A stretch of DNA of 64,000 bases, from contig SKCR01038873.1 of the NCBI GenBank assembly GCA_019454045.1, positions 1 through 64,000 of the forward strand, written 5' to 3'. This DNA is from Zanthoxylum bungeanum (taxonomy: Eukaryota > Streptophyta > Magnoliopsida > Sapindales > Rutaceae). Of the stretch, positions 15,669-52,474 are shown piece by piece; positions within the stretch are counted from its first letter, which is position 1, and every line of letters starts with the position of its first letter. The notes beneath the pieces were generated by a model that saw only the letters and a list, made by a program, of their open reading frames with translations, did not search any database and was not told where the DNA came from. The position numbers were made by a program, and so were the translations under genes.

Positions 15669-17664
15669 CTATTTTTCGGCGAGCCTCTAACCCTCTGTGG
15701 AGTACTCGGGAAACCTAGTTTCCTAGTGGGCTAGGATCCCGTTAAATAACGCACAACCTTGACTTTGGCCAACAAGCTGTATGAAATTTAACTAGGTAGA
15801 TCTCTAAGATCAATTGGATCTCATCCAATTCCTAGATCCAGTAGGTGGACCTCCAAGTCCGAAACATATATCCAATATATGCCAATATATCCAATATATT
15901 CCCTAACCTTTTTCCTCTGAATCAACTAAGCCTTTGCTTTGGCTCAACAAGCTTAATGAAACCAGTTAAGCGTGACCCATTGACAGTGGGAAAACTTCGT
16001 AATCGAGGTCGATGAACAAGAAGTGACATTGACTTTGGCCAACAAATCACAACTTGCCCAAGACGTACGATATGGAACAAAGCTTTCTTGATTCAAACAC
16101 ATTTGCGATGGACAAAGGTCTTGACTTTGGCCAACAAACCAATGCCAATCTTGGATCTTGAGAGAGAATCACTCAATGTAAGGAAAAAAGCTTACTATAA
16201 TATGAGGGTTTTTGTCGCGATTTGGCAACCAATTTATTATCTTTAATTAGGTCTCATCATACACCCTTAAGCATGCATTCTAAAATCATAATAAGGCGCG
16301 AATAAAATAATAATGATATTCGGATGGATATATAACAAACTTTATTCCTAGAAAAAATCTCTCCATTTCCTCTCTCACTAGCATTATTTATACTTCTACC
16401 CAATTACATAATATTTCTAAAGAAACCTCATTTACATTGAGGGGAATTGGTGAGAAGATAAATACAATGAGATAAGGAGATAATTGGCTGGACACGCAGG
16501 TCCAATTTAATAAATTCTAAATTTATTACAATAATTTCCAGTATTGCCCTCACCCATCTAATATCTATCCGATATACATTATTCAAACAATACATCTAAG
16601 TATTCACACAAAGCATGTTATCAATCAATATAATCCAATAATTAATCTTTGATTAATGACCTTCCAATGTTCAAACAACGATTTGATTTGCGCGAGTCCA
16701 ACTCGTTTAAGAATAAGTACTCAAAGTAAGTATTCTTGAATTATATCGAACTACAATTTTAAATCCAATTTAAATTATATTCAATACTAATTCATATTTA
16801 ATTCCAAATTAAATAATTACACTTTTAATAGTGTCTTTTAGACTTGGATTCCAAATCCAAACTTCATGGGTCTCAAAGGCCCAATTAGTATCCAATACTA
16901 TTTAATTAAAGTCCAATGGGCTTTTAATTAATTCTTTAGGTGTGGGCTTTGGCCATTATGGATCAAACCCAAGATGCCAAGGCCCAATAAGGAATCACCC
17001 TTATGCCATAAAATCAATTTTGGCCCATTAGGCCCAATTAAATTTTTAAAGGCCCAATGTCATACTTTGGACTTTATGAAAATGGTTTTAGGTCCAATTG
17101 GATCCAACCCAATTGACCAAAACCAAACTTGGCCCAACCAAGCCCATTAAGTCCAATGACAACAATTAAATTAATACATTTTTTCAAATTACATATTAAT
17201 TCAATTCAAGTGTAATTAACATAATTAATCAACTAATCTAATGTTTCCAAAATACTAATTAATCTAATTAATTATGCCCTTCATTTCCAATTCATGTCCA
17301 ACACAAATTGAAGCAAAACAATTCATTCTACATGCTTCTAATGTTCACGGCAATATCAAGAAATAATATCCAATTTTGATTTCAATCAAATTAAATCAAC
17401 AATCAATATTCATTTCATGTTTTAAACATATCCAATAGGCTAAAATAAAAAAATCAACATGATACACTATTAGAGTAGCATTCGGCCAAGCATGAAGAAT
17501 TATGGAAATTTTGATCCAACCATTTTATCAATTCTATTGATGCACAAATCCTATTTATCATCATCAAAGCTCGACCAAACAACCAATTTGAAGAAATTAT
17601 GTTCTAAACACAAAAAACCCAAATAAAGTCCATAAACCCTAAATTTTCAATTCAAACTTAGATC
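15669..17664 (-). other. Copia unit 1 leader (5' untranslated region)
   Basis: Long non-coding leader. It contains four spaced copies of TGACTTTGGCCAACAA or close variants between about 15760 and 16130, each beside unique sequence, and an AATT-rich part at 16700-17300 with repeated GGCCCAA stretches. No gene seen. Confidence 0.65.
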
Positions 17665-17676
17665 GCTCTGATACCA
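17665..17676 (-). other. Copia primer-binding site, unit 1
   Basis: Minus strand TGGTATCAGAGC, the standard initiator tRNA-Met primer site, two bases from the end of LTR B. Confidence 0.9.
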
Positions 17677-17677
17677 T

Positions 17678-19440
17678 TGTTAGTGTACCTAGAACATGCC
17701 AAGACCGTCTAAGAGTTATTTGTGTGTGAATAAATCAAAGAGAGTTGCGGAAATACTCACATTGATCGGATTTAGGATTTCAAAATTTCATTCTTTGTTG
17801 GATGTAATGGAAGCTCCAAGCCTTGTATTTTCATTCCAAACTAATGGATTGATTTCCCTATCACCTTCATTTGTCTCTTTAATGTGCTAGCAATCAAGAA
17901 TTTTGCAACAAAATTCCTAAGAGAGAGCTCCATGGTCACGACAATAGAGAGAAATTGGAGAAGATAGATGATGTGAATAGTGACTTATTACAACTTCTAA
18001 AAGTTGACCACTTTAATATATTAAGTTGAGTGTTGGTTTTGGTTGAGTGAAATAAAAGCAATCCAAGCTTTTCTCAACTAATAACAACTTCCATCAAGTG
18101 TCAAACATTTGATGTAAGTTGGTGGGCCACACTTCAAATTCTAAATTTAAGTCGGAAAATCCAACACGCAACTTCGCTCGGGTCCGGGTTCGTTTAATTC
18201 CAAATTAAACGAATTTCCGTTGCGACTTAGTTAAATCAAATTTAATTAAATAATAATACCTCGCAATATTATTACGTAAGTCGCTTATGAATTAATTCTA
18301 AATTTATTCGTTCGCTTGAATTAAAATCCAAGTTTAATTCCGCTTTGAAATCCAATTTCGACTAATATATCTAATATATTATTTTAGCCCAATTAAATAA
18401 ATTAAATAGTAAAATCAAATTTAACTATTAAATTTACTTTACTGATTAATTCCAAATTAATCGCGTTCTCTCTTCTCGACGAATTTAATCACAGATAAAT
18501 TCTCGACGCAATTAATCACAGATTAATTCTCTCTCTAATAATTAATCCCAGATTAATTTTCTCTCTCATAATTAATCCCAATTAATTCTCTTCGAGTCAA
18601 ATCTCATCGGTGAATCTTTGGGAAGCGACCCAATAGATCCCTGGATATGTTGGCAGTAAATACGGTCATTGGACTATCCGAACACGTGCGTACCCGGTAC
18701 CACGTTTCTACCAATTTACAAGACATGGTTGGCTTCTAGCAAAGCACAGTGCCTACCAAATTCTCCAGATCTCTGCCCCGTACGAAGCATATATCAGATC
18801 TCTTGTAACTAGTCTCTATAATCGGATAATCATGACCTAGTCATATTATCCCTATGACTGCAGTACTTAAGAGTACTAGTTCCGTATCCTACGTGATCAT
18901 CATCTCCATATGACTGAAGTAATACTTTCATCTTGACATCACACCCAATACACTACGATTTTCAGTATACCCAGAAGAGGTGTACACAGAACCTGTTAAA
19001 GCCCCGGAGGATCAAAACCAAACTATACTGATTGTCGCAAGTATTAGCGATGCAAGTCTTAGGTTAAGACCAAATACACCTACCCTGATTCGAATTCCCA
19101 TAGACACATAGTCATACTACCAATGACATTCTGAGGGGTCTATCCAGATTGAAGCTGTCTCCGTACCATCGGTAAATAGAACCTCTTATTACACTTGCAT
19201 GAGTACCAATACCCAAATATATGAGAACTATGCCGTTATGCTCCATAACACGCACAAGTGTAATACTAGCCTATTCCACATTATCGATGTCCAGTCTCGA
19301 TAATACTACGATTATGGATATTTAATGATTAAACCTTACGTGGATTAATACTGTCTCATATTCTATTAATCTGGTACTAATCATATGGACTTTTATCATT
19401 TATATATCCCTGTAATCCAATTACAAATGATAAAAGAGCA
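17678..19440 (-). mobile_element. Copia LTR B (5' LTR of unit 1), outer end missing
   Basis: Starts TGTTAGTGTACC next to the primer site and matches LTR C along its length until about 19440 (GATAAAAGAGCA), where the last 90-100 bp including the terminal TGTTGGACAA are replaced by a forward LTR. The segment corresponding to the GTCAGGCGTAATATA block of LTR C is also deleted near 18768. Confidence 0.85.
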
Positions 19441-21446
19441 AAGGAGATCATGGTGTTGTTGTACAAATTAACTATGTGACAAAGGAGATTGCACTCTTAT
19501 CTTTATTGATTAGATCACCTAGATGTATAAATGATAGAAGGTCCTTATGATTTGTTCCTGGATTGAGAATGATATGAGACAGTATCAGTCCACGAATAAT
19601 AAATCATTAAATATCCCTAGTCATAGTATTATCGAGATTGAACATCGATAAATACGTAAAAGACTATTATTACACTTGTGCGCGTTGTGAGGGCACAACG
19701 ACATAGTTCTCATATATTTGGGTATAAGATACTCATGCAAGTGTAATAGGAGGTTGTGTTTTACCGATGGTACGGGAAACAGCTTCGCTCTGGATAGACC
19801 CCCTCGGAATTCCATTGGTAGTATGACTATGTGTTTATGGAAGTCCGAAATCAGGGTAGGTGTATTTGGTCTTAACCTGAGACTTGCACCGCTAATACTT
19901 ACGACAATCAATATACTTTGGTTTTGGTCGTCCAGGTCTTTAACCGGTTTCTGTATACGCCTCTTCTGGGTATATCGAGAATCGTTGTGTGTTGAGTGTG
20001 ATGTCAAGATGGAAGTGTCACTCCAGTCATATGGAGTTGATGATCGCGCAGAGATACATAACTGGTTCTCTAAAAAGGTTGCAACCGTCGGGATAATATG
20101 ACTTGGTCATGATTATCCGATATTAAAGAGACTAGTTGCTCGTCATCTGATATATGCTTCGTACAGGGCAGACACTGTACCAGCCCCAGGCCTGGCATGT
20201 GATCATCCGATACTGGATCGAAATACGTAATACTACGTATACTACACCTGATATAGATCCTATATTCCTGTAAGGATATTTCTGGAGAATTTGGTAGGCA
20301 TGGCGCTTTGCTAGAAGCCAACCTTGTCTTGTAAATCGGTATAAACGTAGTACTAGGTACTTACGTGTTCGGATAGTCCGACGACTGAATTTACTGCCAA
20401 CATATCCGGGGATCTCATGGGTCGCTTCCCGAAGATTCACCGATGACTTATGACTCGCACTTTTAATTAATCTGGGATTAATTAGATAAGAGAGAAAATT
20501 AATTTGGGATTAATTGCGGAGATATTTTATCTGGGATAAAATATCATTTAAAAGAGAAAATGATTAATTTGGAATTAATCGATAAAATTAATATATTCGA
20601 TATATTAAACGAAATTGGATTTCGACGCGGAATTAAAATTAGATTTTAATTCGGGTGAACGAGTTAATTTAGAATTAATTCGTTAGCGACGTGAATAGTG
20701 ATTTCGCTAGGCATAATCATTTAATTACGTCGCAACGGAAAATTCGTTAATTTGGAATTAGCGAACCCGAGCTCGGGATTGTTTGCGAGCGTATTCGCAT
20801 TTCGAATTCGAGTGCGGCACGCAAGTCAAATCAAGCGTCAAATCGCTAGTCACTTCAAGCATCAAATCACTTGTCACTTTGAGTGATGTGACTTGACAAC
20901 TTGATTGAATGATGTGAATAGTGATGGATTGGTTGTTGGTATTAATGTTTGTCTTTTTGAAAGCAAATAAATTGCTAAATTAATTTGGAAATTATTTAAG
21001 TGTATCATATACACTTTTAAGCAACCAACCATCTCTCTCTTCTTCACTTCTTCTCCCTCTCATTCTCGGCCTAAGAGCATTATTTTCTTTCTGTTTTCTG
21101 GTCTAAAACCGAGAGATAAGGAGAGAAATGGGAAGCCAAAGTCGCGATTTTGTCGTAAAATCGGGAGTGCTAGCACACTACGAAGTCATGCGAAGGTGAT
21201 AGGGAAGTCCACCCATGATCTTGGAATCGTTTGACGAAGTTTGGAGCTTGATTCTTGAAGCTTGAAGTCGAAATGGAGGAGATCAAAAACTACAGTTTGA
21301 CGTGAGCAGTAAGGAGGGTAGTGAAGATTTTTGTTACCTCGTGCGTCGCCTAACCAATCGATGTGAGTATTCCGTAACTTCCTCGTTGTATTCGCACTTA
21401 TTTTCAATGCTTGAAATGATCTTGGGATGCTTAGTATTTTTCAACA
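19441..21446 (+). mobile_element. Copia LTR E, forward, outer end missing
   Basis: Forward LTR of a related subfamily. It lacks the first about 40 bases (joined at 19441 to LTR B) and ends TTTTTCAACA at 21446, just before a primer site. It shares the GTACAACAACACCAT, GGACATCGATAA and CCAGCCCCAGGCCTGGCATG blocks with the minus-strand LTRs in inverted form. Confidence 0.82.
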
Positions 21447-21447
21447 A

Positions 21448-21460
21448 TGGTATCAAGAGC
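21448..21460 (+). other. Copia primer-binding site, forward unit
   Basis: TGGTATCAAGAGC, the tRNA-Met site with one inserted A. Confidence 0.75.
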
Positions 21461-24200
21461 AAGGTTAAGCATGAAAATATTTTAGGGCTTAAAATTGGGT
21501 AAAATGTTTGTGAGCATGATTTGAATGAATTGGATGTTTGAGTATTCTTAACACATGTTGAATTTAAGTTTGATTGTATCAATTTCATGAAATTGTGTTG
21601 GATCATTTTTTCCCCAAATCTTAGCTTGGCCGAGAATGATGCCCTATTTTGATGTCTTGGATTTTTTTTATTTTTGATCATTGGATGTGTTGGAAATCAA
21701 TTGGGAATATTGATTTAATGTTTAATTGGATTCAATTGGATTGGATTAAAATTGGACATGAAAATCACCTCATTGCCGAGACATATAATAGCATGTAAAT
21801 GGGTTTGATTTTTTGATAAAATGTTGGGCATGTTTTGTTGTTGATGAGCATGATTAAGTAGGCTAATTGATGTTTTAGAAATGTTAATTGGGTAATTAAT
21901 TGTGTATACACTTTAGGTTAATTAAATGTGAAATTAGATTTTTGTGTTTAATTAATTGGGCCTAATTTTGGAAATTGGACTTTTAAAGTTGTTATTGGGC
22001 TTATTGGGCTTGGTTGTACCAAGATGGGTTTAGAAAAATTGGTTGGATCCAATTGGACCCAAAACCGCTTCCTTAAAGCCCAAATGTGACTAATGGACCT
22101 TTAAAGTTTAATTGGGCCTAATGGGCCTAAATTGATTTCTGGGCTTATGGGGTAACTCCCGGATTGGACTTTGGTTATTGGGTTCGACCCGAGTTGACCA
22201 AAAGTCCACGCCTTAAAGAAATTAATTAAAAGCCCATTGGACTTTAATTAAATTGACGTTGGACGTTAATCGGACTTTGAGACCCGAAACGATTAAATTT
22301 GGAATTAAGTCGTAAAAGGTTTATTAATAAAGTGTAGTATTTAATTTGGAATTAAATAAACGAATTAGTGTTAAATACAAATTGAATTGGATTTAATTAT
22401 GTAGTTTAATTTAATTCGAGAATTCGTACCTTGAGTACTTATTCGCAAAACGAGTTTGACTCGCGCAAAATCAAATCGTTGTTTGAACATTGGATGATCA
22501 CTAATTATCAGATTAATTAATTTGATTAGATTGATTGATAACATGCTTGTGTGAATACATGGTTGCGATGCATGAATAATGTATATCGGATGGATATTAG
22601 ATGGGTGGGGCAATTTTAGAAATTGTTGTAATAAATTTGATTTATTAATTTGACCTGCGTGTCCAGCCTTATACCTCTATATTCTTTGTATTCTCTTCTC
22701 ACCTATTCCCCTCAATGTAAATGAGGTTTCTTTAGAAGTGTAGTGTAACGGGTAGAAGTAATACATGTGCTAGCGGGAGAGAGAAATGGAGAGATTTGAT
22801 CTAGGATCAATGTGTAAAGTATCCATCCGCATATCATTATTATTTTATTTATACGCGCTTTATTATGTGTTTAGAATGCATGTTTAAGGGTGTATGATGA
22901 TGAGACCTTAACAAAGATAATAAATTGGTTGAAAATTTGCACGCGAAAAACCCTCAAACAATATTAAGCATTTTTCCTTCCATTGAGTGATTCTTACTCA
23001 AGATCCAAGACTGGCATTGGCTTGTTGGCCAAAGTCAAGGCCTTTGTCCGTCGAGGATGTGTTTGAATCACGAGAGCTTTGTTCCATATCAGTGTCTTGT
23101 CCAAGTTGTGGTTTGTTGGCCAAAGTCAAGACCATTTCTTGTCCATCGACATTGATTATGAAGCTTTCCATGGTCAATGGGTCGCGCTTAACTGGGATCA
23201 CTAAGTTTGTTGTGCCAAAGCCAAGGCTTAGTTGATTCAGAGGAAAAAGGTTAGGTAATACATTGGATGTATTGGCATATATAAGATATATGTTTCGGAC
23301 TTGGATGTCCCCCTACTGGATCTAGGAATTGGATTGGATCAATTCGATCTTAGAGATCTACCTAGTTAATTATCATACAATTTGTTGGCCAAAGTCAAGA
23401 TTGTGTGATATTTAACGGGATCCTAGCCCGCTAGGAAACACGGTTTCCCCAGTATTCGACAGAGGGTTAGAGGCTCGCCGAAAAATAGTGGGAGGCAAGA
23501 ATGATTTGCAATATTCATTTAATTACTTGCCATACGCGCTCAAACAAATATCATTCGTCATATAAATTAAATGTTAGTTGGACTAATTTTTAAATGCTGT
23601 TTTTAATAAATAGTTGGACTATATTCAAACTATTCATTTATAGTTGATTTTATAATTGGATTATAGTAATCAATATAATTGATTTTAATCTATTAAATTA
23701 TAGTTGATTAAATAGTTGGACTATTGTAATCATTATAATAAATAGTACCTAAATCGTTGATTAAATAGTTGGATAATTAGAATCAAGATAGAAATTGAAA
23801 GATTGACATTTAAAACATAATCCTAGGGAAAATGTATTTAAATGGTTTAATTTTCAAATTGGGAATTAATTTTCAAGATGGTCCTGGAAACTAATAAGTT
23901 ACTTTATTTGATAAAATAACATATTAGGCCTAAGCCCGGAGTTAAGCAAATAGTCGAGCATAATCTTTGGAAGATTTATGTGATGATAACTTTAGTGCTT
24001 AATCCATTAAGCTTGTCGCAGTAGACTCCTTAATTTCTGAATCAGAACTAAGGATTAGATCCTTAAAGTATGATGATGAAATTGAAGGATCTTCATAGAT
24101 CTATACTTAGATTTTAGAAGTAATAAATTACAATTGATAACTCTGGGAGTTTAATGACTATTCTCAAGGAGATGAAGTCAAAGTTTGCAATTAGGCAAGT
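21461..24200 (+). mobile_element. Forward copia leader fragment, inverted relative to its neighbours
   Basis: Non-coding leader matching 14000-17660 in reverse orientation: GCCCAA-rich stretch near 22000-22200, TTGTTGGCCAAAGTCAAG repeats near 23020, 23110 and 23380, and the gag-start segment near 23900-24000 (TTAGGCCTAAGCCCGGAGTT). It breaks at about 24200 without reaching pol. Confidence 0.75.
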
Positions 24201-24411
24201 ATTAGGGTAGCATTCGGCCAAGCATGAAGAATTATTGAAATTTTGATCCAACCAATTTTCTAAATTATATTGATGCAAAAAACCTATTTATCATTATCAA
24301 AGCTCAACCAAACCACCAATTTGAAGAAATTATGTTCTAAACACAAAAAACCCCAAATAAAGTCCATAAACCCTAAATTTTCAAATCAAACTTAGATCGC
24401 TCTGATACCAT
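24201..24411 (-). mobile_element. Copia 5' leader stub with primer-binding site
   Basis: Matches the leader next to LTR B (for example GTAGCATTCGGCCAAGCATG at about 17476 and 24210). Minus strand TGGTATCAGAGC at 24399-24410 is the primer site for LTR C. Confidence 0.8.
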
Positions 24412-26365
24412 TGTTAGTGTTCCTAGAACATGCCAAGATCTTCTAAGAGTGATTTGTGTGTGAATAAATCAAAGAGAGTTGCGAAAATACTCACATTGAT
24501 CGGATTTAGGATTTCAAAAATTCATTCTTTATTGGATGTAATGGAAGCTCCAAGCCTTGTATTTTTATTCCAAACTCATGGATTGGTTTCCCTATCACCT
24601 TCATTTGTCTCTTTAATGTGCTAGCAATCAAGAATTTTGCAACAAAATTCCTAAGAGAGAGCTCCATGGTCACGGCAATGGAGAGAAATTGGAGAAGAGA
24701 GATGCTGTGAATAGTGACTTATTACAACTTTTAAAGTTGACCACTTTAATATATTAACTTGAGTGTTGGTTTTGGTTGAGTGAAATAAAAGCAATCCAAG
24801 CTTTTCTCAACTAATAACAACTTCCATCAAGTGTCAAACATTAGATGTAAGTTGGTGGGCCCCACTTCAAATTCCAAATTTAAGTCGGACAATCCAACAC
24901 GCAACTTCACTCGGGCCCGAGTTCGTTTAATTCCGAATTAAATTAATTTGTCGTTGCGACTTAATTAAATCCAATTTAATTAAATAATAATACCTCGCAT
25001 TATTATTACGTAAGTGGCTTACGAATTAATTCTAAATTAATTTGTTCGCTTGAATTAAAATCCAATTTTAATTCCGCTTTAAAATCCATTTTCGACTGAT
25101 ATATCTAATATATTATTTTATCCCAATTAAATAAATTAAATAGTAAAATCAAATTTAACTATTAAATTTACTTTATCGATTAATTCCAAATTAATCGCGT
25201 TCTCTCTTCTCGATGAATTTAATCCCAGATAAATTCTCGACGCAATTAATCCCATATTAATTCTTTCTCTAATAATTAATCCCATATTAATTTTCTCTCT
25301 CATAATTAATCCCATATTAATTCTGTTCGAGTCAAATCTCATCGGTGAATCTTTGGGAAGCGACCCAAGAGATCTCTGGATATGTTGGCAGTAAATACGG
25401 TCATCGGACTATCCGAACACGTGCGTATCCGGTAACTTGTTTCTATCGATTACAAGACATGGTTGGCTTCTAGCAAAGCACCGTGCCTACCCAATTCTCC
25501 AGAAATATTCTTTAAAGGAATATATAATTTTTGTTAGGCGTAATATATGTAGTATTGCGTATTACGTTCCAGTAACAGATGTCACATGCCAGGCCTGGGG
25601 CTGGAATTATGTCTGCCCCGTACGAAGCATATATCAGATCTCTGGTAACTAGTCTCTATAATCGGATAATCATGACCTAGTCATATTATCCCGATCACTG
25701 TAGTACTTAAGAGTACTAGTTCCGTATCCTACGTGATCATCATCTCCATATGACTAAAGTGATACTTCTATCATGACATCACACCCAATACACTATGATT
25801 CTCAGTATACCCAGAAGAGGCATACACAGAACCTGTTAAAGCCCCGGACGACCAAAACCAAAGTATATTTATTGTCGCAAGTATTAGCGATGCAAGTCTC
25901 AAGTTAAGACCAAATACACCTACCCTGATTCGAATTCCCATAGACACATAGTCATACTACCAATGGCATTCCGAGGGGTCTGTCCAGATTGAAGCTGTCT
26001 TCGTACCATCGGTAAAAAGAAACTCATATTACACTTGCATGAGTATCCAATACCCAAATATATGAGAACTATGTCGTTATACTTCCATAACACGCACAAG
26101 TGTAATACTAGCCTATTCTGTATTATCGATGTCCAGTCTCGATATTACTACGACTATGGATATTTAATGATTAAACCTTACGTGGATTAATAATGTCTCA
26201 TATCTTATTAATCTGGTACTAATCATATGGACTTTTATCATTTATATATCCCGGTAATCCAATTACAAATGATAAAAGAGCAATTTCCTTTGTCACATAG
26301 TTAATTTGTACAACAACACCATGTTCTATACAAATAGTGATGTTCTGGGTCATAATTGTCTAACA
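24412..26365 (-). mobile_element. Copia LTR C, complete, shared between two units
   Basis: 1954 bp from TGTTAGTGTTCC to GTCTAACA. Left side: primer-binding site; right side: polypurine tract (26366 onward). It is therefore both a 5' and a 3' LTR. Contains repeated TTAATCCCATATTAATT units near 25240-25320 and the 12-base-arm stem-loop at 26232-26278. Confidence 0.88.
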
Positions 26366-29110
26366 ATCTCCCTCTTGGCCTATAGCCAATCACTCAAGTG
26401 TCCTACACCTGAACTATGTACGGGTCGCTCAAATTTCTGCTGAGAAATAGTTTTCGTCAGTGGATTTGCAATGTTTTATTCGATCATCATATCGCCACGA
26501 TGTATGATCTGACGAATCAGAAGAAATTGTCGAAGTATAAACTTGGATCGTTGATGAGACCGCGATTCTTTAGCCTATGTTATAGCCTAGCTTAGCTACT
26601 AACAGAACGACTCTTAATCTAATTAGGATTATATAGATCCAAAGTGCTTCTTTTACTGCCTCAGCTGTAGCAATATTTTGATTTTATTGTTTAATCGGTA
26701 ACAGTATCTTGCTTGGAAGATTTCCAGCTCACTGTTCCGTTGTTAAAACTAAATATGTACCCTTATTGTGACTTAAAGTCGTGTTTGTCGGTATGGAAAC
26801 TTGCAGCGGTGAACCTAGTCACCTCAAGTTCTCATTTCCCCATATTCCCAGAAAGCATCCTTAGTTCGTCCAAGATACTCAAGGATGTTCTTTACATCAA
26901 TCCAGTGACCATCACCTGGATTGGCCTTATAGCGTCTACATATGCTCAAAGCATACGAGACATCAGGTCACATACATTTAAAAAACATACGAGCTCTGGG
27001 AGGGTTGTCAGCATCTTTCTAGATCTATCCCAGTATATCTTTATTCCTAGAATAAAGCCTGCTTCTCCAGGTATTCCATGGAGAATTTTAATGAAAGCCA
27101 TGTTTTTACCGATTATATTATGAGAATGTTATTGCTAAAAAGCAATACATCATCATCTTATAGGACATTCATTGTCAGTGCGCTCCCACTAACCTTCTTA
27201 TATACACAAGAATAATATTCGTTTTGAATTAAATCATATACCATTATGATTACATCAAAACGCTGGTTCCAAGAACGCAATGTTTGCTTCAATCCATAAA
27301 TGGATTGATTTAACTTGCAAACCTTGTTTGCATGTTTTGGCACGACAAAACCATCATAATGTTGCATACAAACATCCTCCAAAAGGTTTCCGTTAAGGAA
27401 AACGGTTTTGGCGTCCAGCTGTCATATTTCATAAATGAAATATGCAGTTATAGCAAGCATTATCCGAATGGATTTAATCAGGGTAACAAGTGAAAAAGTT
27501 TTGTCGTAGTCGACACTATGTCTTTGAAGATACCCTTTCTGTACAAGCCTAACTGTGTACATTTGTATGTTGCCATCCATGTATGTCTTCTTTGAAGACT
27601 CATTTGTTACCAATAGGCACAATGCCTTCAAGTATGTCAACCAGTGTCCAAACATGGTTGGTATACATGGAATCCATTTCGGACTTCATGGCACTTTGCC
27701 ATATAGCGGAGTCGATACCTCGTATCACTTCCTCATACGTAGTTGGTTCAGTATCCTCAATAAGACTAATGTCTACATGAGGTGAGATCAGAAACTCATA
27801 ACTCTTAGGTTGTGTTCTGATTCTCTCCGACCTACTCGGTTCTAGTATATTCGAAGATTGGGGAAAAATCTCATCCTTGATGAACTGTTCGTGTTCCGTT
27901 AAGGATCGGTGCCAGGAACAGTATTACTCTGATTTTTATCGAGTTTTACTTTCCTCCCATTTACCACTGCATTTATGTATTCCTCTTAGGAAAGCTGCAT
28001 GAAGAGCAACAAATTTCTTTGTTCTCTTGTGAGTTATGGAATTGGTTATCGAATTAGTTTCCTTAGGATAACCAATTACAAAATGGGCACTTATCCAATT
28101 TGGGTTGTAGTTTGGTATCATCCAAACATATGCCCATCATCCCCAAATCTTCAGGAATGAGAAACCCGGTTTCTTTCCTGTTCATATCTAATATGAAGTC
28201 TGTCTAACAGATTTTCATGGAACCTTATTCAAAATAAGTATTGCACTGTTTAATGTATCCCGTGAAGGAAATTGGTAGCTCAGAGCGACTCATCATTAAC
28301 CTTACCATGTCCAACAAAGTTCGGTTTCTTTGTTTGGACACACCGTCAATTGAGGTGTTCCGGGAGGAGTCGATTGTGAAAGAATACTATACTCTTTCAA
28401 GTAATCTTGAAACTCATATGTTTAAGTATTTTACACTATGGTCCGACCGTAAAGTTTTTAATACTTTTACCGGTCTGTTTTCTTACTTCGTGTCGAAACT
28501 CTTTGAATTACTCAAAAGTTCCTGACTTGTGTTTCATAAGATACACTTAACCGTAACACGATGCCACATCTGTAAATGTTACGAAGTATTTATATCCACC
28601 TCTAGCCTAGCTAGACATAGGCCCACTTACGTCACTATGAACGATGGCTATTAGATCGGTGGCACTTGCACTTTTACCAAGTAAAAGGTGTTTTAGGCAC
28701 TTTGCCTAATAAACTAGATTCGTAGACATCATTTGAATCAAATTCGTCCTAGTATCCACTCTTCGAAAGTGTGGATATAAGAGTTTTGTTAATGTGTCCC
28801 AGATGACAATGCCACTAATAAGTCTCATCTGATTTATTCAGTTTGAGCTTTTTGTTTGTTATTATATGTTTGAGATTTGTTTATATTCAAAATATAAGTA
28901 CTGTTATTTACATCTAATGTGTATATCTCAATATCATATTTATAAACAAAAAACTTAGGGTTCATGAACATAAAGGTATACCCGCAATGGGTTAAACTAC
29001 ATATAGAGATAATGTTTCTAGTCAAACTAGGTACATTATATCAGTTTCCTAATTTAAGTACATACCATGAGGGAAGTTCCAAAACTTATGTCTCTACGGT
29101 TAAAACAGCG
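26366..29110 (-). pseudogene. Copia pol remnant, unit 2
   Basis: Collinear with unit 1. Polypurine tract at 26366; RNase H relic to about 26700; RT pieces at 27158-27655, with KLNQSIYGLKQ and a YDKTFS block where copia has YDETFSPVA; integrase pieces near 27900-28500; pre-integrase block at 28834-29025. Stops and frameshifts throughout. Confidence 0.8.
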
Positions 29111-29269
29111 ACTCTCATCCCGTTTCTGACTCACAGGTCGATCTCATCTGAAGCCAGTATCCTGCTAATCAGCATATGTTGTACATCAGTATATATGTAT
29201 GTTCCATATCCAGTATCAAAATCCAATTTTAAAACTGGTAGTGGACATAATTATAACAAACTTACCTGA

Positions 29270-30002
29270 AGCCGGAGCCTTGCCCGTCTTCATTCCGTCA
29301 TGTTTGTCTTGTCCATACGGCAGTCACGCTTCCAGTGACCTCGTTTGCCATAATTTAGGCAGACATCTTGGGATATGTCATTTGTCTTCCCAGAAGATTG
29401 TGACGATTTTGCCTTTGACCTTTTTTCTTCAGACCCCCAGAAGTCTTTGGCCAAGCCTTGGCATTCTGAGATGTCGAAGTAAGATGCGACAACGCTTCTT
29501 ACCCTTTTAAAAACTCTGGCTCTGCTTTCTGGAGCATAGCCATTAACTCTCCAAGAGTTTTCTCTTGGTTCAAGATGAACCCGCCCCAGCTTTCGGGCAG
29601 AGACTATAAGATCAAATATATGGAAGTCTCGACCTCGTAGGTAATGCCCAGCTAACTTTAGTTGTTCAATGTCAGCAATCATCTGCGACATCTAGTGCTC
29701 GACATATGTACCCTCTGAGATACGCGAGCGTAAGAGCTTCTTTTATACTTTTAAGATATAAGGTTAGATATATAAAGATCCTTTAATTTCATCATCATTG
29801 TAAAAGGATCCAATCCTTAGTTCAGACGACGAAATTTAGGAGTCTTTGCGGCAAGCATAATGGATTGAGCACTAAAGTTATCATCACGATGAGTCTTCCA
29901 AAGCTCATGCTCTACTATTTTCTCAACTCCGGGCTTAGGCCCGAGAGGTCGCTCTATCAAATAGAGTAACTTCTCAACTCCCAGGACTATCCTGAGATTC
30001 AT
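29270..30002 (-). pseudogene. Copia gag remnant, unit 2
   Basis: Minus strand: gag start MNLRIVLGVEKLLYLIERPL at 30002; middle block 29691-29290 ending in a zinc knuckle reading CLNYGKRGHWKRDC. Only the second Cys is replaced (Tyr), so the knuckle is less decayed than in unit 1. The start lies on one copy of the 520-bp segment that is tripled in unit 1. The two gag blocks are separated by stops near 29700-29800. Confidence 0.78.
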
Positions 30003-31266
30003 TTCCCAATATGAAAATTAAAGTTGTAAAAGACATTTTTCACCTAGGATTATGTCCTTTTGACGCTAATCTTTCAAGTCATCTTGATTGCTATAGTCCA
30101 ACTATCCAATCAACGATTTCGGGTACAATCTAATGTAATGATTACTATAGTCTAACTATCTAATTAACTACAATTTTGATTGGTTACTTTCAAATGTATT
30201 GATTACTATAATCCAATTATATAACCAACTATAAATGAAGTAGTTTGAATACAGTCCAACTGTTAAATTAAAACAACAATTGAATATTAGTCTAACTAAT
30301 ATATATATAAATTATTAATGACGAAAAATGAAATGAGTGCGTATTGGTAAATATTTAAACGAAATTACAAATTTAATACTTGTCTCCCACTATTTTTCGG
30401 CGAGCCTCTAACCCTCTGTGGAGTACTCGGGAAACCTAGTTTCCTAGTGGGCTAGGATCCCGTTAAATAACACATAACCTTGACTTTGGCCAACAAGTTG
30501 TATGAAATTTAACCAGGTATATCTCTAAGATCAATTGAATCTCATCCAATTCCTAGATCCAGTAGGTGGACCTCCAAGTCCGAAACATGTATCCAATATA
30601 TGCCAATATATCCAATATATTCCCTAACATTTTTCCTCTGAATCAACTAAGCCTTGGCTTTGGCTCAACAAGCTTAATGAAACCAGTTAAACGTGACCCA
30701 TTGACAGTGGGAAAGCTTCGTAATCGAGGTCGATGAACAATAAGTGACCTTGACTTTGGCCAACAATCACAACTTGACCAAGACGTACGATATGGAACAA
30801 AGCTTTCGTGATTCAAACACATGCGCGATGGACAAAGGTCTTGACTTTGGCCAACAAACCAATGCCAATCTTGGATCTTGAGAGAGAATCAATCAATGGA
30901 AGGAAAAATGCTTAATATAATATGAGGGTTTCTGTCGCGATTTGGCAACCAATTTATTTTCTTTAATTAGGTCTCATCATAAACCCTTAAGCATGCATTC
31001 TAAAATCATAATAAGGCGCGAATAAAATAATAATGATATTCGTATGGATATATAACAAACTTTACTCATAGAACAAATCTCCCAATTTCCTCTCTCCCAC
31101 TAGCTCTATTTATACTTCTACCCAATTACATAATATTTCTAAAGAAACCCCATTTACATTGAGGGGAATTGGTGAGAAGAAAAATACAATGAGATAAGGA
31201 GATAATAGGCTAGACACACAGGTCTAATTTAATACATTCTAAATTTATTACAATAATTTCCAATGC
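30003..31266 (-). other. Copia unit 2 leader, truncated
   Basis: Same leader as 15660-16550 up to AATTTATTACAATAATTTCCA near 31260. It then jumps into the LTR: about 1.1 kb of leader, the primer site and the first about 60 bp of LTR D are deleted. Confidence 0.75.
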
Positions 31267-33176
31267 CAATAAAAGAGAGTTACGGAAATACTCACATTGA
31301 TCGTATTTAGGATTTCAAAAATTCATTCTTTGTTGGATGTAATGGAAGCTCCAAGCCTTGTATTTTCATTCCAAACTCATGGATTGGTTTCCCTATCAGC
31401 TTCATTTGTCTCTTTAATGTGCTAGCAATCAAGAATTTTGCAACAAAATTCCTAAGAGAGAGCTCCATGGTCACGGCAATGGAGAGAAATTGGAGAAGAG
31501 AGATGCTGTGAATAGTGACTTATTACAACTTCTAAAGATGACCACTTTAATATATTAAGTTGAGTGTTGGTTTTGGTTGAGTGAAATAAAAGCAATCCAA
31601 GCTTTTCTCAACTAATAACAGATCCATCAAGTTTCAAACATTTGATGTAAGTTGGTGGGCCCCACTTCAAATTCCAAATTTAAGTCAGACAATCCAACAC
31701 GCAACTTCGCTCGGACCCGGTTCGTTTAATTCCGAATTAAACGAATTTACAGTTGGGACTTAATTAAATCCAATTTAATTAAATAGTAATGCCTCGCAAT
31801 ATTATTACGTAAGTCGATTACGAATTAATTCTAAATTAATTTGTTCGCTTGAATTAAAATCTAATTTTAACTCCTCTTTAAAATCTAATTTTAATTCCGC
31901 TTTGAAATCCAATTTCGACTAATATATCTAATATATTATTTTAGCCCAATTGAATAAATTAAATAATAAAATCAAATTTAACAATTAAATTTACTTTACC
32001 GATTAATTTTAAATTAATCGCGTTCTCTCTTCTCGAGGAATTTAATCCCAGATAAATTTTTGATGCAATTAATCTCAGATTAATTCTTTCTCTAATAATT
32101 AATCCCAGATTAATTTTCTCTCTCATAATTAATCTCAGATTAATTCTGTTCGAGTCAAATCTCATCGGTGAATCTTTGGAAGCGACCCAAGAGATCCATG
32201 GATATGTTGGTAGTAAATACGATCATCGAACTATCCGAACACGTGCGTACCCGGTACCACATTTCTACCGATTTACAAGACATGGTTGGCTTCTAGCAAA
32301 GCATCGTGCCTACCCAATTCTCCAGAAATATTCTTTAAAGGAATATATAATCTTTGTCAGGAGTAGTATACGTAGTATTACGTATTACGTTCCAGTATCG
32401 GATGTCACATGCCACGTCTGGGGCTGGAATTATGTCTGCCCCGTACGAAGCATATATCAGATCTTTGGTAACTAGTCTCTATAATCGAATAATCATGACC
32501 TAGTCATATTATCCCGATGACTGCAGTACTTAAGAGTACTAGTTTCGTATCCTACGTGATCATCATCTCCATATGACTAAAGTGATACTTCCATCTTGAC
32601 ATCACACCCAATACACTACGATTCTCAGTATACCCAGAAGAGGCATACACAGAACCTGTTAAAGCCCTGGATGATCAAAACCAAAGTATATTTATTGTCG
32701 CAAGTATTAGCGATGCAAGTCTCAGGTTAAGACCAAATACACCTACCCTGATTCGAATTCTCATAGACACATAGGCATACTACCAATGGCATTCCGAGGG
32801 GTCTATCCAGATTGAAGCTGTCTCCATACCATCGGTAAACAGAACCTCTTATTACACTTGCAAGAGTATCCAATACCCAAATATATGAGAACTATGTCGT
32901 TATGCTTCCATAACACGCACAAGTGTAATACTAGCATATTCTGCATTATCGATGTCCAGTCTCGATAATACTAGGACTATGGATAACCTTACGTGGATTA
33001 ATACTGTCTCATATTTTATTAATCTGGTACTAATCATATGGACTTTTATCATTTATATATCCCGGTAATCCAATTACAAATGATAAAAGAGCAATTTCAT
33101 TTGTCACATAGTTAATTTATACAACAACACCATGTTCTGTACAAATAGTGATGCTATGAGTCATAATTGTCCAACA
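31267..33176 (-). mobile_element. Copia LTR D (outermost 5' LTR), inner end deleted
   Basis: Begins at AAAAGAGAGTTACGG, inside the LTR, and runs to the intact outer end TCATAATTGTCCAACA at 33176. Followed by TSD CATAT at 33177-33181, which matches 8864-8868. Confidence 0.87.
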
Positions 33177-33181
33177 CATAT

Positions 33182-33585
33182 CCACTGGAATGTTTCTTAA
33201 GAGTCTTAGATCTGTCATCCAAAGACTCCTTACTCAAGCCATCCCTAATGAATTTGATTTTATCTTCACGGTTGTCAGACATCATTCCTAAAGAACGACA
33301 ACGAGTATTACATGTCATACGAGCACATTTATAGCAAACACCAATTCTTTTAGCTCTTCTCTTTTTAGCATAGGTGCTTCTTCCTAAACCAGGTATATAC
33401 GAAACAAAAGAGTCAGAGGACTCACCTGCCAATCGGACCCGTGCTTCAATAATCCAACGAATTCCATTAGGAATGCCTTTCATCATCAGTAATCTCATCC
33501 GTTCCAAGCGAGCTTTGTAGACTTTCATCAAAGTGTTTTGAGGGAGAGAAGGAAATTGCTTGTGAAGATTTGTGAGAACTTCCAT
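33182..33585 (-). pseudogene. Cysteine-rich accessory ORF of the Athila element, N-terminal half
   Basis: Starts at an ATG ending at 33585 and is open for about 135 codons until cut by copia. Residues 74-80 are KKRRAKR. Cysteines follow at 84, 87, 92 and 96 (C-x2-C-x4-C-x3-C), then an acidic/basic helix-like stretch. A basic patch, a compact Cys cluster and this size resemble the cysteine-rich nucleic-acid-binding proteins of carlaviruses and relatives, several of which suppress RNA silencing. That is my family-level recognition, not a search result. It lies downstream of the integrase end, the env-like ORF position in Athila. A T-rich tract ending TTGTGTAG just upstream could be a splice acceptor. 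The C-terminal half is at 8703-8868; an unsplit but 5'-truncated copy is at 55083-55503. Confidence 0.65.
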
Positions 33586-33700: not shown

Positions 33701-34076
33701 TCAGGTAGACATGACTGCCCGAACATTAGGCTGGATCTGAAAGTGTGACACTTTTTTTTCGCTCAAATGATTCTCCCCAGTAGTGCTTGACACGCTTGTT
33801 TTTAACCTTGAATATTTTGTTGGAGTTGGGATCATGTAACTCAATGGTTTATCTGGTAAAACTTTGGTGATTAAGAATGGACCTGACCACCGTGATTTTG
33901 GCTTCCATGGAAAGAGTTTCAACATTGATTTGTTTAACAATATCCTCTGTCATGGTTCTAGTTGTATGCGTACTAACTTCTCATCATGTCTCTTTTTGGC
34001 ATTTTCTTTATACAGTTTGGCATTCTCAAAAGGCTGTATGTGAAATTCCTCCAATTCATTGAGCTGGTGGAACTGT
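33701..34076 (-). pseudogene. Athila integrase C-terminal fragment
   Basis: Minus strand: QLNELEEFHIQPFENAKLY, then about 40 residues later LKLFPWKPKSRWSGPFLI, then FQIQPNVRAVMST. This is the end of a Ty3/gypsy integrase (the KSRWSGPF block). Everything upstream in pol (RT, RNase H, integrase zinc finger and DDE core) is missing: protease ends at about 34082 and this fragment starts within six bases. A stop and a frame change occur between the two blocks (near 33950). Confidence 0.82.
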
Positions 34077-34081
34077 TTCTC

Positions 34082-34738
34082 TTATGTTGCTTGTAGTGCA
34101 AGAATAGGCTTTTTCAGTGTGCAATACACTTTATCTTCAAGCTCCACAGACAGTTGACATGCTTTAAGTTTGTCAGTAGAACTTTGTATTGCATTGGAGT
34201 CTTGGATGGTACTATATATCACATCAAGTCTGAAATATTCCTCCTTCTTTTCGTCATCCGGGAAATTCATGGCTTTGAAAATATTGAATGTTACTTCTTG
34301 GTCTTGTACCCTCATGGTTAGTTCTCCTTTTTGTGCATCAATAATGGTTTGACCTGTAGCCAAGAATGGTCTCCCAATGATGATCGACAAGTCTTATTCT
34401 TCCTCCATATCAAGGACAATAAAATCTGCTGGGAAAATAAATTTGTCAACCTTGACCAGCACATTCTCAACTACACCTTTCGGAAATACGAGCGTTCTAT
34501 TAGCAAGTTGCAGAGAGACTGAGGTGGGCATTATTTCTCCAATCTGCAATTTCCTGAAAATAGAAAAATGCATCAAGTTAACACTTCCACTTAGATCACA
34601 CAAAACCCTGCCGAAGTTATGCTCTCCTATGATGCAAGGAATGGTGACACTGCCAGGATCTTTCAACTTTGGGGGAAGCTTCCTCTGGATGATAGCACTA
34701 CATTCTTCTGTCAATGCTACTGTTTCGTAATCTCCCAA
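34082..34738 (-). pseudogene. Athila retropepsin-like protease domain
   Basis: Aspartic protease that would process the gag-pol polyprotein. 34738-34394 and 34390-34082 form one frame split by a TAA at about 34391-34393 after VLDMEEE. The active-site stretch reads VLCDLSGSVNLM, whereas the family has DLGAS, so the catalytic loop is altered. The flap region (LQLANRTLVFPKGVVENVLV) and the IIGRPFLATG block are well kept. It follows gag in the usual order, after about 300 bp of broken sequence. It is joined to the integrase C-terminus by deletion. Confidence 0.84.
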
Positions 34739-35039
34739 TCTTCACTTTCATGAAAGAATGTCTTTCATGAATTTGACATAGCTAGGCATTTGTTCCAAAC
34801 TTATGCAAATGGAATGTTGATATGCAGTTTTTTGAAGATCTTCAGGAATCGAGAAAATTGTTTGTCTAGTTTGTTTTTCTGGAGACGTTGTGGAAAAAGT
34901 TAAGGTAGAGTGATTCTTTCTTAATCTTTTTCCTTTACTTCTTTTTCCTCCATCTATGGAACTGCTTCGCTTCTTTCTTTTAGAACTTCTTCAATTGATG
35001 CCTTGATTTCAACATCTTTGTTGATTTCTATACCGCTTT
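34739..35039 (-). pseudogene. Degraded gag-protease linker
   Basis: Broken frames with many Lys/Glu codons, in the place of the charged gag-protease linker. No domain recognised. Confidence 0.45.
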
Positions 35040-35926
35040 TTAAAATGATGGCATGATATTGCTCCTTCCCCATGTTCCTTGGATTTGGTTCTGAGTTGCT
35101 GGGAAGATTTCTCGATGTCTGTAACTCTGAGCATTGGCCAGTTGTCCAATTTGATTTTCCAGTGCTTTAATAGACGCAGATTGGCTTTGAATCATAGCAT
35201 CATATTTTTTTAACTGGGCCATCACTTCCGCTATTCTTGGTTCATTTTCATGCTACTGGCTTTGCTGTTGGAATCCTGGTGGTGGATTGTTCCTTTGTCC
35301 TGAATTGTTGCTCCATGCGAAATTGGGATGATTCCCCCACCCTGGGTTATAGGTAATGGAATATGGAGTGTTCCCCTCTCTGTTGAAATTGTTGACGTAA
35401 TTCACCGTTTCTTTATGTTGGTTTGTCTCTGGTGCTCCTCCATATGGTGAACTTGTGGATCCAATATTGCCTTGCATGCTAAGAGTTTCCATGAATTTGT
35501 ATATCTGATCCAGCTTGGCGTTTACTGCTGTGTTGGCTCCAACTTCATAAATTCCAGCAATTCGTTGGATCATGCTCTTTTCTGTTGGCCACAAGGAATT
35601 GTTGTTGGCCATTTCTTCAATTAAGTCCCAGACTTGATCTTCTCCTTTTGCCATTAAAGCTCCTCCAGCCGCAACATCAAGTGTGGCTCTCATTATTCCA
35701 GAAAGTCCATTATAGAATGTTTGTAGCCACTTTGCAATCTCATGGTGAGGACATTTCCGGAGTAAATCTTTGTACCTTTCCCAAGCTTCGCAGAGGGATT
35801 CTGAGTCATGTTGCACAAAAGATGTGATGTCATTTCTCAGCTTTGCAGTTCTGGTTGGTGGAAAGTACTTTGCAAGGAATTTTGTGGCAAGAGTGTTCCA
35901 AGTTGTGATGGAATCTGCTAGTAGTG
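35040..35926 (-). pseudogene. Athila gag, C-terminal part
   Basis: Retrotransposon gag (Retrotrans_gag type) that would form the particle. 35926-35253 runs open for more than 220 codons from LLADSITTWNTLATKFLAKY through ESLCEAWERYKDLLRKCPHH to a Gln/Asn/Pro-rich tail. A stop at about 35250 separates it from 35225-35040, which has QLKKYDAMIQSQSASIKALE, a predicted coiled coil, followed by QIGQLA. The N-terminal part is at 50449-50864; both sides of copia element 2 carry the TSD AATGT, and removing one copy of it together with the element brings the two gag halves into one frame. Confidence 0.87.
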
Positions 35927-35931
35927 AATGT

Positions 35932-48903: not shown

Positions 48904-50443
48904 ACTATACATTAAAGTTTTAACCTCAACTTGTATGGTTCAGCGTGTCGTGTTGTTTTTAGCCATGATTTGTAGGTGGGAAGGGCTTCTTGAATATGTA
49001 TGCAAGTATATGAGATATATATGTATATATATAAGTAACAACTGAACGTGAGCCTAGAGAGTTCCACTATATTAAGTTTACTCGTTGAGCACTAGGGCGA
49101 CTTTCGTCAAATGTTGACAAAGTATTTTGGGTTTAAGGATTAAATTATTTGATCCGATAATTCATGAGATGAATTAATTTAATTGAATTAATTAATTTTA
49201 TATCAAAAGTTGATATAAGTTTATTGTATAATAGATGTAAATTTGATTTACATAAAATTAGTAATTAATTAGTGAATTAATTTAATTGTTAAATTAATAT
49301 ACAAAATTAATTACTTAGTTTATACAAATAAAGGTATTAATTATTTAAGGTAATTATAGTTAAAGTAATTGAATGGTTTTTGTTAAAGTAACTAAAATCA
49401 TTTAATTGCAATTTAGTTACCTTGGTTGGTGAGATAATTTTATTTTAACTTGGTTAAGTTAATTTTTGAAATATGTGGTGTAGGGAAAATATTCTCTTGA
49501 ACCGTGGTTTAATTAATTGGTTTTGTTTTGTTTTTCTTTATTTTAATTTATAAAAACAAAAAAACAAAAAACAAAAAAATTCTTTCTCCACTTACTTCAC
49601 TCACTGCCTCTGCCGAGAAAAGAGAAAAGGAAATAAACAAAAAAAAAAAAATCTTTTCACCTCCACCCCTCTGTTTTGCTCTCTGCCGAATAAGAAAAGC
49701 TGAATTTTTTTTTGCTTTTGGCTCTACAAATTCAATTCTTATTCTCACCAAAAAATTACCCAATATATTATCAAGTATATGGAATTAATCCTAAAGTGTT
49801 AGAGATTAATTTGTGTGCTTGAAATGAAAATTTTTCTAGGGTTTAAGAGTTAAACTTTAGTGAAGTTTTGTTTCCATTCTTGAGTGATCAAACCACCTTT
49901 TGGTCACCAAGATTTGTTCTTCAAGTAACTTGATTTGGTGGAGGTAGAAGAATATCAAAGAGCTTGGTGGATTTGGGGCTTACATGCAAAGCTTCACAAA
50001 TTGGAAAGGATTAAAAGTTATTGTAGGTAAATTTATTGATTGGGTTGTTGTTGTTGGAAAAATTATTTATGGAATTATTGGATAATTGAAAGCATGTATG
50101 TGAGGAATTTTCTAAGCATTAAAGTGTATGGATGATATATTGATTTTATATGCTTGGTTTATATTTGATAATTGTTGGAAAATATTTTGATGCTTGGATT
50201 AATTTTATCAAGTCTTGATAAAATTGTTAAAATGTGTTTAGAATATTTATTAAGTTTATGGAAATTATATTGATGTATGGAAAAATTATATATGATGATA
50301 TATGAATTTAATGCATTGGAATAATTTAAGCTTATGGAAGTAAATATTTTAACACACATTTTAGGGTATTACCGAAAAAAATTGCTCGGGATTTGATTCT
50401 GTGCGCGTTCCGCTGCACCTCGGCATATCCGTTCCTTCTAACA
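48904..50443 (+). mobile_element. Copia element 2 3' LTR, second part
   Basis: Resumes ACTATACATTAAAG and runs to CTTCTAACA. About 140 bp near 48989-49127 are absent from the 5' LTR. Confidence 0.9.
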
Positions 50444-50448
50444 AATGT

Positions 50449-50864
50449 AGCCAAGCCTTAGCTCTGTCTTTCAAAGAATATGGAAAAACACGCAGTCTCA
50501 TTGCTTCTTCAGCCGCTCGGTTGTAATTGAAAGTGCCGCAAACTTCCAGGAAGTTGCTGATGTGGGCATTAGGATCTTCAGTTGTATTCCCCTCGAACTG
50601 AACTGACTGCTGTATCATCTGGATGCATGTTTTGATGTCACACGCATTTACTGGTATGAGAGGAAGTACAATACAAGAAATGAAGCTGTCAACCACCGAA
50701 ATAGTTCTGTCTTGAATGGGAATTGGTGGTGCAACCTCCAAAGGTTCAGGTTCCATGTTGATTAGTGCTTTTTGGCCTTCTCGCCTTTCCTTTCTCAACT
50801 TTCTGATTGTTCTTTCAATTTCAGGGTCAAGCGGACGGATTTCAAAGCTTCTGGTTCCTCTCAT
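50449..50864 (-). pseudogene. Athila gag, N-terminal part
   Basis: ATG at 50864 (MRGTRSFEIRPLDPEIERTI). Frame open to EEAMRLRVFPYSLKDRAKAW, where the copia insertion and TSD AATGT (50444-50448) interrupt it. The start was chosen because the preceding codons are hydrophobic leader sequence in the untranslated region, although the frame is open further upstream. It is the left-most gag block of Athila-type Retrotrans_gag proteins; the rest is at 35040-35926. Confidence 0.87.
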
Positions 50865-50971
50865 GTAGTGACTGAGAACTTGAAACACAAGAAAATAAAA
50901 CAATAAGTAAAAAGAAATTAGATACAAATAACGGTATCTAACCCCAAAATTAATAGTGAAAGATAAATAAG

Positions 50972-50989
50972 TCCCCGACAATGGCGCCA
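50972..50989 (-). other. Athila primer-binding site (tRNA-Asp type)
   Basis: Minus strand TGGCGCCATTGTCGGGGA, two mismatches from the TGGCGCCGTTGCCGGGGA form seen at 59574, complementary to tRNA-Asp. Seven bases from the LTR end. Confidence 0.85.
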
Positions 50990-52408: not shown

Positions 52409-52474
52409 CATCCAAGGGACTAGCGCGCGCGACGCGTGCAACGTTACGTGTCACGACACGCCGTTGATTTGTGC

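What the first reader, a model, noticed from the sequence alone, without database searches (positions are those of the whole stretch)
33182..33585. Small basic cysteine-rich ORF in the env position of the Athila element
Seen: KKRRAKR patch followed by Cys at 84, 87, 92 and 96 in a frame of about 190 codons once the copia insertion is disregarded; a second copy is at 55083-55503. Known: carlaviruses and relatives encode small basic cysteine-rich nucleic-acid-binding proteins, some of which suppress RNA silencing. Inference: the retroelement lineage may carry a virus-like or convergent protein that would help it resist host silencing.
Basis: partly seen in the sequence, partly recalled or inferred. 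Interest (0 to 1): 0.92.

Follow-up and report, generated by a model that had tools for sequence, protein, structure and literature searches.

The report
Retrotransposon gene resembling virus silencing suppressor
An abundant plant jumping gene carries, where an envelope gene would sit, a conserved protein related to a small RNA-binding protein of plant viruses, next to a hormone-activating enzyme of plant type, so jumping genes may use virus-type tools on their host.

Summary
A minus-strand frame (ATG at 33585) encodes a basic four-cysteine protein matching two Pfam families of viral proteins, Viral_NABP (5.8e-7) and Carla_C4 (1.8e-6). It lies directly after integrase in a Ty3/gypsy element with Athila-type features. 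The own genome holds at least 150 scored copies; 104 of 150 are stop-free over the ~136 codons matched. Relatives, 65 of 120 listed being 180-184 aa, include Populus, Acer, Xanthoceras, Rhamnella and Orobanche proteins. In 38 of 41 loci an intronless LOG (cytokinin-activating enzyme) frame or remnant follows; 37 of 41 have integrase upstream. Variants shared by six or more copies show constraint on the viral-type gene (0.26) and LOG (0.18), as on gag and integrase, unlike most wrong-frame and non-coding controls. LOG-like domains in gypsy elements are published; I found no paper on the viral-type gene. Silencing suppression is plausible from viral relatives but untested; no viral sequence could be set beside it and the direction of transfer is open. 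Most likely it is a retroelement accessory protein that binds nucleic acid and counters host silencing or reprograms host cells.

The parts
33157..33585 (-). NABP-like frame of element A: ATG at 33585; element sequence to about 33175, then foreign codons of the insertion
8730..8867 (-). C-terminal piece (aa 137-182) of an NABP gene, in register with the break at about 33175
8869..33174 (.). nested insertions between the two pieces; ATATG at both borders
7900..8467 (-). LOG-like remnant, frameshifted
33729..34165 (-). C-terminal integrase remnant directly upstream of NABP
34082..34741 (-). protease-like remnant (read by eye; no Pfam match)
35247..35930 (-). gag remnant (Retrotrans_gag 1.1e-15)
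55113..55499 (-). second NABP copy, aa 53-181
54279..54847 (-). LOG-like remnant of the second copy, in three pieces; Lysine_decarbox 1.9e-19 and 1.5e-6 for two of them
50991..53012 (-). LTR of about 2.0 kb (start TG at 53012; exact end not determined); its start recurs on both sides of coding regions in related loci
50972..50989 (-). primer binding site TGGCGCCATTGTCGGGGA, tRNA-Asp-like (tRNA end recalled)
50424..50924 (-). start of gag following that LTR
4997..6610 (-). LTR stretch (approximate) behind the 8.9-7.9 kb NABP/LOG remnants

Best explanation
An Athila-type Ty3/gypsy element has the order LTR - primer site - gag - protease - RT - RNase H - integrase - NABP - LOG - LTR, all in one sense. 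NABP (about 182 aa, pI about 9.8) is a homologue of the nucleic-acid-binding cysteine-rich proteins of carlaviruses and their relatives, with an added N-terminal helical part and C-terminal block, and is kept as an accessory gene of the element. SHOWN: profile homology, position, copy number, spread over several eudicot orders, purifying selection, the constant LOG partner in this genome. INFERRED: the basic patch and four cysteines (probably a zinc site) bind RNA, and the protein protects element transcripts from small-RNA silencing, as several viral relatives do; the LOG enzyme raises active cytokinin locally, favouring dividing or meristematic cells in which new copies can be inherited.
For: Pfam Viral_NABP 5.8e-7 and Carla_C4 1.8e-6; 25 of 28 family members match each. 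Own genome: 150 scored matches, 104 of 150 stop-free over about 136 codons, 62 of 150 stop-free within an open frame of at least 184 codons (hand counts). Constant neighbours: integrase upstream 37 of 41 loci, 89-144 nt; LOG downstream 38 of 41, 187-267 nt. gag, RT, RNase H and integrase domains, LTR and primer site. The nonsynonymous/synonymous ratio falls from variants seen in one or more copies to those in six or more: NABP 0.61 to 0.26, LOG 0.63 to 0.18, INT 0.63 to 0.25, GAG 0.54 to 0.19, RT 0.38 to 0.06. Cys pattern in 72 of 79, basic run in 75 of 79, 49 of 79 exactly 182 aa. Named rows tend to cluster by plant order. LOG: Lysine_decarbox 7.2e-35, Arabidopsis At2g37210 structure 2a33 6.7e-52. 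Viral relatives suppress silencing (passages).
Against: No silencing assay. Cysteine spacing C-x2-C-x4-C-x3-C differs from C-x2-C-x9-C-x4-C reported for potato virus H. Structure models are weak (pLDDT 62.8 and 68.7) and no BFVD match is significant (best E 0.81 and 0.33). No viral protein could be put beside it: two viral-contig scans confirmed none, and no listed protein hit bore a virus name (most rows are unnamed, lists capped at 120). NABP loci were chosen by NABP similarity, which favours intact NABP frames. Beside them only 3 of 33 well-covered LOG copies are stop-free (24 of 41 NABP). Intervals at six copies are wide (NABP 0.11-0.54, GAG 0.04-0.54, RT 0-0.34). Expression was not shown. 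NABP-LOG synteny was shown in this genome only.
Confidence: 0.55

Rival explanations
1. The protein is a nuclear regulator rather than a silencing suppressor: like chrysanthemum virus B p12 it enters the nucleus, binds DNA and drives cell growth; together with LOG it forms a growth-promoting pair that widens the pool of dividing cells in which the element spreads.
For: Strong basic patch and pI about 9.8; pairing with a cytokinin-activating enzyme gene in 38 of 41 loci, both under purifying selection; p12 is a transcription factor causing hyperplasia (PMC12172455, passages; PMC3689765, passages).
Against: No target or localisation data; p12 is a single viral case; LOG and NABP may be independent gains; most LOG copies beside NABP are broken.
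Confidence: 0.2
2. It is a nucleic-acid chaperone or nucleocapsid-like helper of the element, acting on its own RNA in particle assembly or reverse transcription, without any role in host defence.
For: Basic patch plus four-cysteine motif and constant place behind integrase.
Against: Gag has this role in related elements (general knowledge); homology is to virus accessory proteins, and no zinc-knuckle family matched any of 28 members at E<=0.001.
Confidence: 0.2
3. Retroelement-to-virus direction: flexiviruses took their small cysteine-rich protein from this plant retroelement lineage, not the reverse. (Compatible with the explanations above; it concerns origin only.)
For: The retroelement protein is longer, with conserved blocks outside the viral match, and its named members tend to cluster by plant order in rosids and Lamiales.
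Against: No tree with viral sequences was possible; nothing here polarises the transfer.
Confidence: 0.25
4. A degenerate env gene or chance frame.
For: It sits in the env position.
Against: Pfam matches, selection, and no transmembrane-like stretch in 77 of 79 members (19-residue hydropathy under 1.6).
Confidence: 0.02

Closest known systems
Carlavirus and other flexivirus cysteine-rich / nucleic-acid-binding proteins (Pfam Carla_C4 PF01623, Viral_NABP PF05515)
   Same: Basic patch directly followed by a four-cysteine motif; significant profile matches
   Different: Encoded in a chromosomal LTR retrotransposon; about 182 aa with extra N- and C-terminal conserved parts; shorter cysteine spacing than in potato virus H
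Athila-lineage Ty3/gypsy elements with 3' extra ORFs
   Same: Order of domains, one RNase H by the space available, tRNA-Asp-like primer site, extra gene after integrase
   Different: The extra genes are a viral-type NABP plus LOG, not the transmembrane env-like or Athila ORF-1 proteins described for the lineage (PMC6317226, section and passages; PMC11728184, passages)
YgdH/LOG domain in gypsy elements of Citrus and Populus (PMC9289625, section 12 read; it cites Steinbauerova 2011, not seen)
   Same: A LOG-family domain inside gypsy elements
   Different: That section does not mention an NABP or a pairing; figures and supplement were not seen
Orchid gypsy elements with an AlkB RNA demethylase (PMC9289625, sections 3 and 12 and passages)
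   Same: Stable capture of a foreign RNA-acting domain by a plant gypsy element; AlkB domains also occur in flexiviruses (its discussion)
   Different: Different protein and host range; that one was tested in vitro

Membership tests
Carla_C4 / Viral_NABP protein family | profile score above the curated gathering score | tested here: met
   30.1 against 23 bits and 28.3 against 20.9 bits; second copy 24.4 and 23.4
[quoted passage not shown]
   basic run 75 of 79, four-Cys motif 72 of 79; zinc binding itself not tested
Carla_C4 / Viral_NABP protein family | cysteine spacing C-x2-C-x9-C-x4-C as reported for potato virus H | tested here: not met
   spacing here is C-x2-C-x4-C-x3-C; how far spacing varies among viruses was not tested, so this bars 'carlavirus CRP', not homology
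Carlavirus cysteine-rich protein (as a viral gene) | 3'-proximal ORF of an RNA virus genome | tested here: not met
   lies between integrase (37 of 41 loci) and LOG (38 of 41) of an LTR element
Viral silencing suppressor | suppresses RNA silencing | not testable with these tools
   needs a plant assay
Athila lineage | gag, RT, RNase H and integrase domains, no chromodomain | tested here: met
   no chromodomain family among the matches of the L031 integrase frame at E<=0.01
Athila lineage | single RNase H, no archaeal-type second one (that marks Tat, PMC6317226) | tested here: inconclusive
   about 150 nt between the RNase H and integrase frames in L031 leave little room; no aRH profile was run
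Athila lineage | position in an RT or integrase tree | not tested
   no named reference sequences at hand
LOG cytokinin riboside 5'-monophosphate phosphoribohydrolase | Lysine_decarbox profile and PGGxGTxxE motif | tested here: met
   7.2e-35; 2a33 6.7e-52 with PGGLGTMEE in the alignment; the motif as a LOG hallmark is recalled
LOG cytokinin riboside 5'-monophosphate phosphoribohydrolase | enzyme activity | not testable with these tools
   needs a biochemical assay

The most novel reading that the evidence does not exclude
A plant retrotransposon lineage older than the split of rosids and lamiids carries a two-gene host-manipulation cassette: a flexivirus-type silencing suppressor or transcription regulator and a captured cytokinin-activating enzyme. 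It would be the plant counterpart of a retrovirus that carries both an immune antagonist and a growth gene, and either the recipient or the source of a virulence gene of RNA viruses.
Probability: 0.3. Interest if true: 0.95.

Novelty: new variant of a known kind. Interest (0 to 1): 0.84.

Why it matters
How plant retrotransposons outlast RNA silencing is an open question, and a viral-type accessory protein kept under selection in an abundant element gives a named, testable candidate. It also links the gene pools of RNA viruses and retrotransposons, and pairs the protein with a hormone enzyme, so that a growth or meristem role becomes testable. At under 250 codons both frames fall below the cut-off for extra ORFs used in a large survey (PMC6317226, passage), which may be why the first went unnoticed.

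Tried and rejected
Chance frame or env remnant: rejected. Unrelated host gene: no cellular family matched at E<=0.001 in 28 members. A short core query meant to bring up virus-sized proteins returned, among the 120 shown of 393, only rows with PF01623 at 55% identity or more, which look like fragments of the same family; none bore a virus name. Structure search: no significant match. Shared contig lengths as evidence of NABP-LOG pairing elsewhere (one coincidence, 4511 bases, P0043 and P0224): too weak to use. Literature: the listings (capped at 8-20 rows, no result) showed no title or abstract on a Carla_C4/NABP gene in a retrotransposon; Steinbauerova 2011 was not seen (a guessed identifier was not held), nor any supplement.

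Full report
Observation. The frame lies on the minus strand, ATG at 33585, stop-to-stop 33603-33154. Both window copies match Pfam Viral_NABP (5.8e-7 and 3.4e-5) and Carla_C4 (1.8e-6 and 6.1e-5), all above gathering score. Element similarity ends near 33175 and resumes at 8867, with ATATG at both borders: a nest of insertions of about 24 kb splits element A.

The family. 264 proteins at E<=10 were found with the frame (120 listed; every listed row carries PF01623). Of the 120 listed, 65 are 180-184 aa long and 103 have the C-x2-C-x4-C-x3-C motif. Named sources: Xanthoceras, Acer, Populus, Rhamnella, Orobanche, Parasponia and Striga (one Parasponia entry is named 'Viral nucleic acid binding'). 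Most listed proteins come from unnamed contigs. In a tree of 117 rows, 16 of them in five groups (four plant orders, assigned from general knowledge, and the window's own), the labels need 5 changes (minimum 4; shuffled mean 9.2): relatives tend to cluster by plant order, with Lamiales and Rosales each needing two changes (quick tree, 44 of 114 inner branches poorly supported). This fits long vertical descent in eudicots; horizontal transfer is not excluded.

The own genome. G000 has 3.96 Gb. Of 40,107 first-look candidates 150 were scored, at 83-90% identity apart from the window's own frame; 104 of 150 have no stop in the matched part of about 136 codons, 46 have one or more; 62 of 150 are stop-free and in an open frame of at least 184 codons (hand counts). 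Scored copies are the best ones, so these shares are biased upwards, and candidates are not confirmed copies.

The element. Of 50 loci, nine were dropped as duplicates; 21 of the remaining 41 reach only 1.5 kb to each side, and the other 20 (about 10 kb) were chosen for a long stop-free NABP frame. Matches to integrase were found in 39 of 41, to RT/RNase H in 28, to gag in 16, mostly broken by stops (one search shows frames of 20 loci; domains). Integrase lies upstream on the same strand within 0.8 kb in 37 of 41 and LOG downstream within 1.2 kb in 38; of the three without LOG, one (L001) is the window's own split copy. LTR-like direct repeats before gag and after LOG were seen in five of the 20 longer loci; the other 15 end too early or were not resolved. 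The window shows an LTR of about 2.0 kb followed by TGGCGCCATTGTCGGGGA, which I recognise from memory as an Athila-type tRNA-Asp primer site. The short gap between RNase H and integrase frames in L031 speaks for one RNase H, as in Athila and unlike Tat (PMC6317226, section 13 and passages). No RT tree was made.

LOG. The frame behind NABP in L049 (217 aa from its ATG, no intron) matches Lysine_decarbox at 7.2e-35 and the Arabidopsis At2g37210 structure 2a33 at 6.7e-52. In G000 150 of 70,089 candidates were scored, 66 of 150 stop-free over about 217 codons (hand count); beside the 41 NABP loci, however, only 3 of 33 well-covered LOG copies are stop-free. Protein relatives include clusters with many members in Xanthoceras and Reevesia and several clusters in Populus. 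In a tree of 85 rows (84 picked from the 120 listed, and L049) the window's LOG lies in a clade of 32 unnamed rows (support 95), apart from the named Populus, Xanthoceras, Reevesia and Diplodiscus rows.

Selection. For variants carried by at least one, three and six copies, the ratio of nonsynonymous to synonymous types per opportunity was NABP 0.61, 0.41, 0.26; LOG 0.63, 0.33, 0.18; INT 0.63, 0.30, 0.25; GAG 0.54, 0.27, 0.19; RT 0.38, 0.13, 0.06 (kappa 2; kappa 4 gives slightly higher values and the same trend). Copies used: NABP 41, LOG 38, INT 26, RT 16, GAG 16. Controls: NABP in wrong frames 0.57 and 4.5 at six copies (the latter on two synonymous types), LOG 1.04 and 1.79; the non-coding stretch behind LOG 0.60, 0.88 and 1.16; LTR values at six copies rest on no more than five variants (0.36, none, 0.24) and say nothing, and at three copies they are 0.72-0.81. 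So controls also drift somewhat below 1, but less than the true frames. Variants in few copies are closer to neutral, as expected for dead copies; shared variants, which arose in copies that multiplied, are constrained. NABP loci were picked by NABP similarity, which biases NABP itself; LOG was not picked directly and shows the same. Intervals are wide at six copies (NABP 0.11-0.54, LOG 0.09-0.31).

Mechanism. A small basic protein with a probable zinc site, related to viral proteins that bind nucleic acids, most likely acts on RNA. Relatives suppress silencing in potato viruses M and H (PMC3689765, passages) and in garlic viruses X and B (PMC12389679, and PMC10335701, passages), but garlic virus D's, confined to the nucleus, lacks this activity by the discussion of PMC10335701, and chrysanthemum virus B p12 is a weak suppressor or none and a transcription factor causing hyperplasia (PMC12172455; PMC3689765). 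The steady LOG partner makes a growth role worth equal testing.

Structure. Models with 28 and 79 sequences reach pLDDT 62.8 and 68.7; the first 50-odd residues are helical with the best confidence. No BFVD match was significant; the first-ranked entries were red clover vein mosaic virus nucleic acid binding protein (E 0.81) and a fig latent virus 1 'RNA silencing suppressor' (E 0.33), followed by unrelated proteins at similar scores. This is a hint, not evidence of a shared fold.

What is known. LOG-type (YgdH) domains in gypsy elements of Citrus and Populus are in print (PMC9289625, sections 3 and 12 read). That survey of 121 genomes reports 15 frequent extra domains; the section read names some of them, none an NABP, and the phrase 'nucleic acid binding' does not occur in the text; its figures and supplement were not seen. 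The large survey of 2019 counted only extra frames of 250 codons or more. The listings of my full-text searches showed no paper on this gene in a retrotransposon; subscription papers are mostly not held. Captured genes in plant gypsy elements are a known kind; a conserved flexivirus-type NABP paired with LOG is, as far as I could see, a new variant.

Noticed in passing
P0183, P0200, P0205, P0211, P0237 and Populus rows such as P0165: LOG-family proteins, some annotated LOGL10, occur in clusters with many members in Xanthoceras and Reevesia and in several clusters in Populus; some may be retrotransposon copies annotated as host genes. They lie outside the clade of the window's LOG, so separate captures are possible.
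   Followed up: partly
window 53012-50424 and 6610-4997, minus strand: Behind each NABP-LOG remnant an LTR is followed at once by a leader stretch in the same sense (primer site and gag start seen at 51.0-50.4 kb), as in tandem elements sharing an LTR.
   Followed up: partly
window 104-1253: Minisatellite of 69-base units, 16.7 copies, which keeps a long open minus-strand frame at 442-855.
   Followed up: no
window about 33660-33715 and 62753-62804: A short stretch of the integrase-NABP spacer (L031 6901-6952) recurs at about 88% identity in opposite orientation elsewhere in the window.
   Followed up: no
alignments A2 and A4, C-terminal half: Conserved blocks NREDKIxFIKDGLSKE (outside the Carla_C4 match, mostly inside the Viral_NABP match of the window frame) and DPVCQFxRKLDGK (outside both, missing from the window frame); the second may mark a retroelement-specific function.
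   Followed up: no
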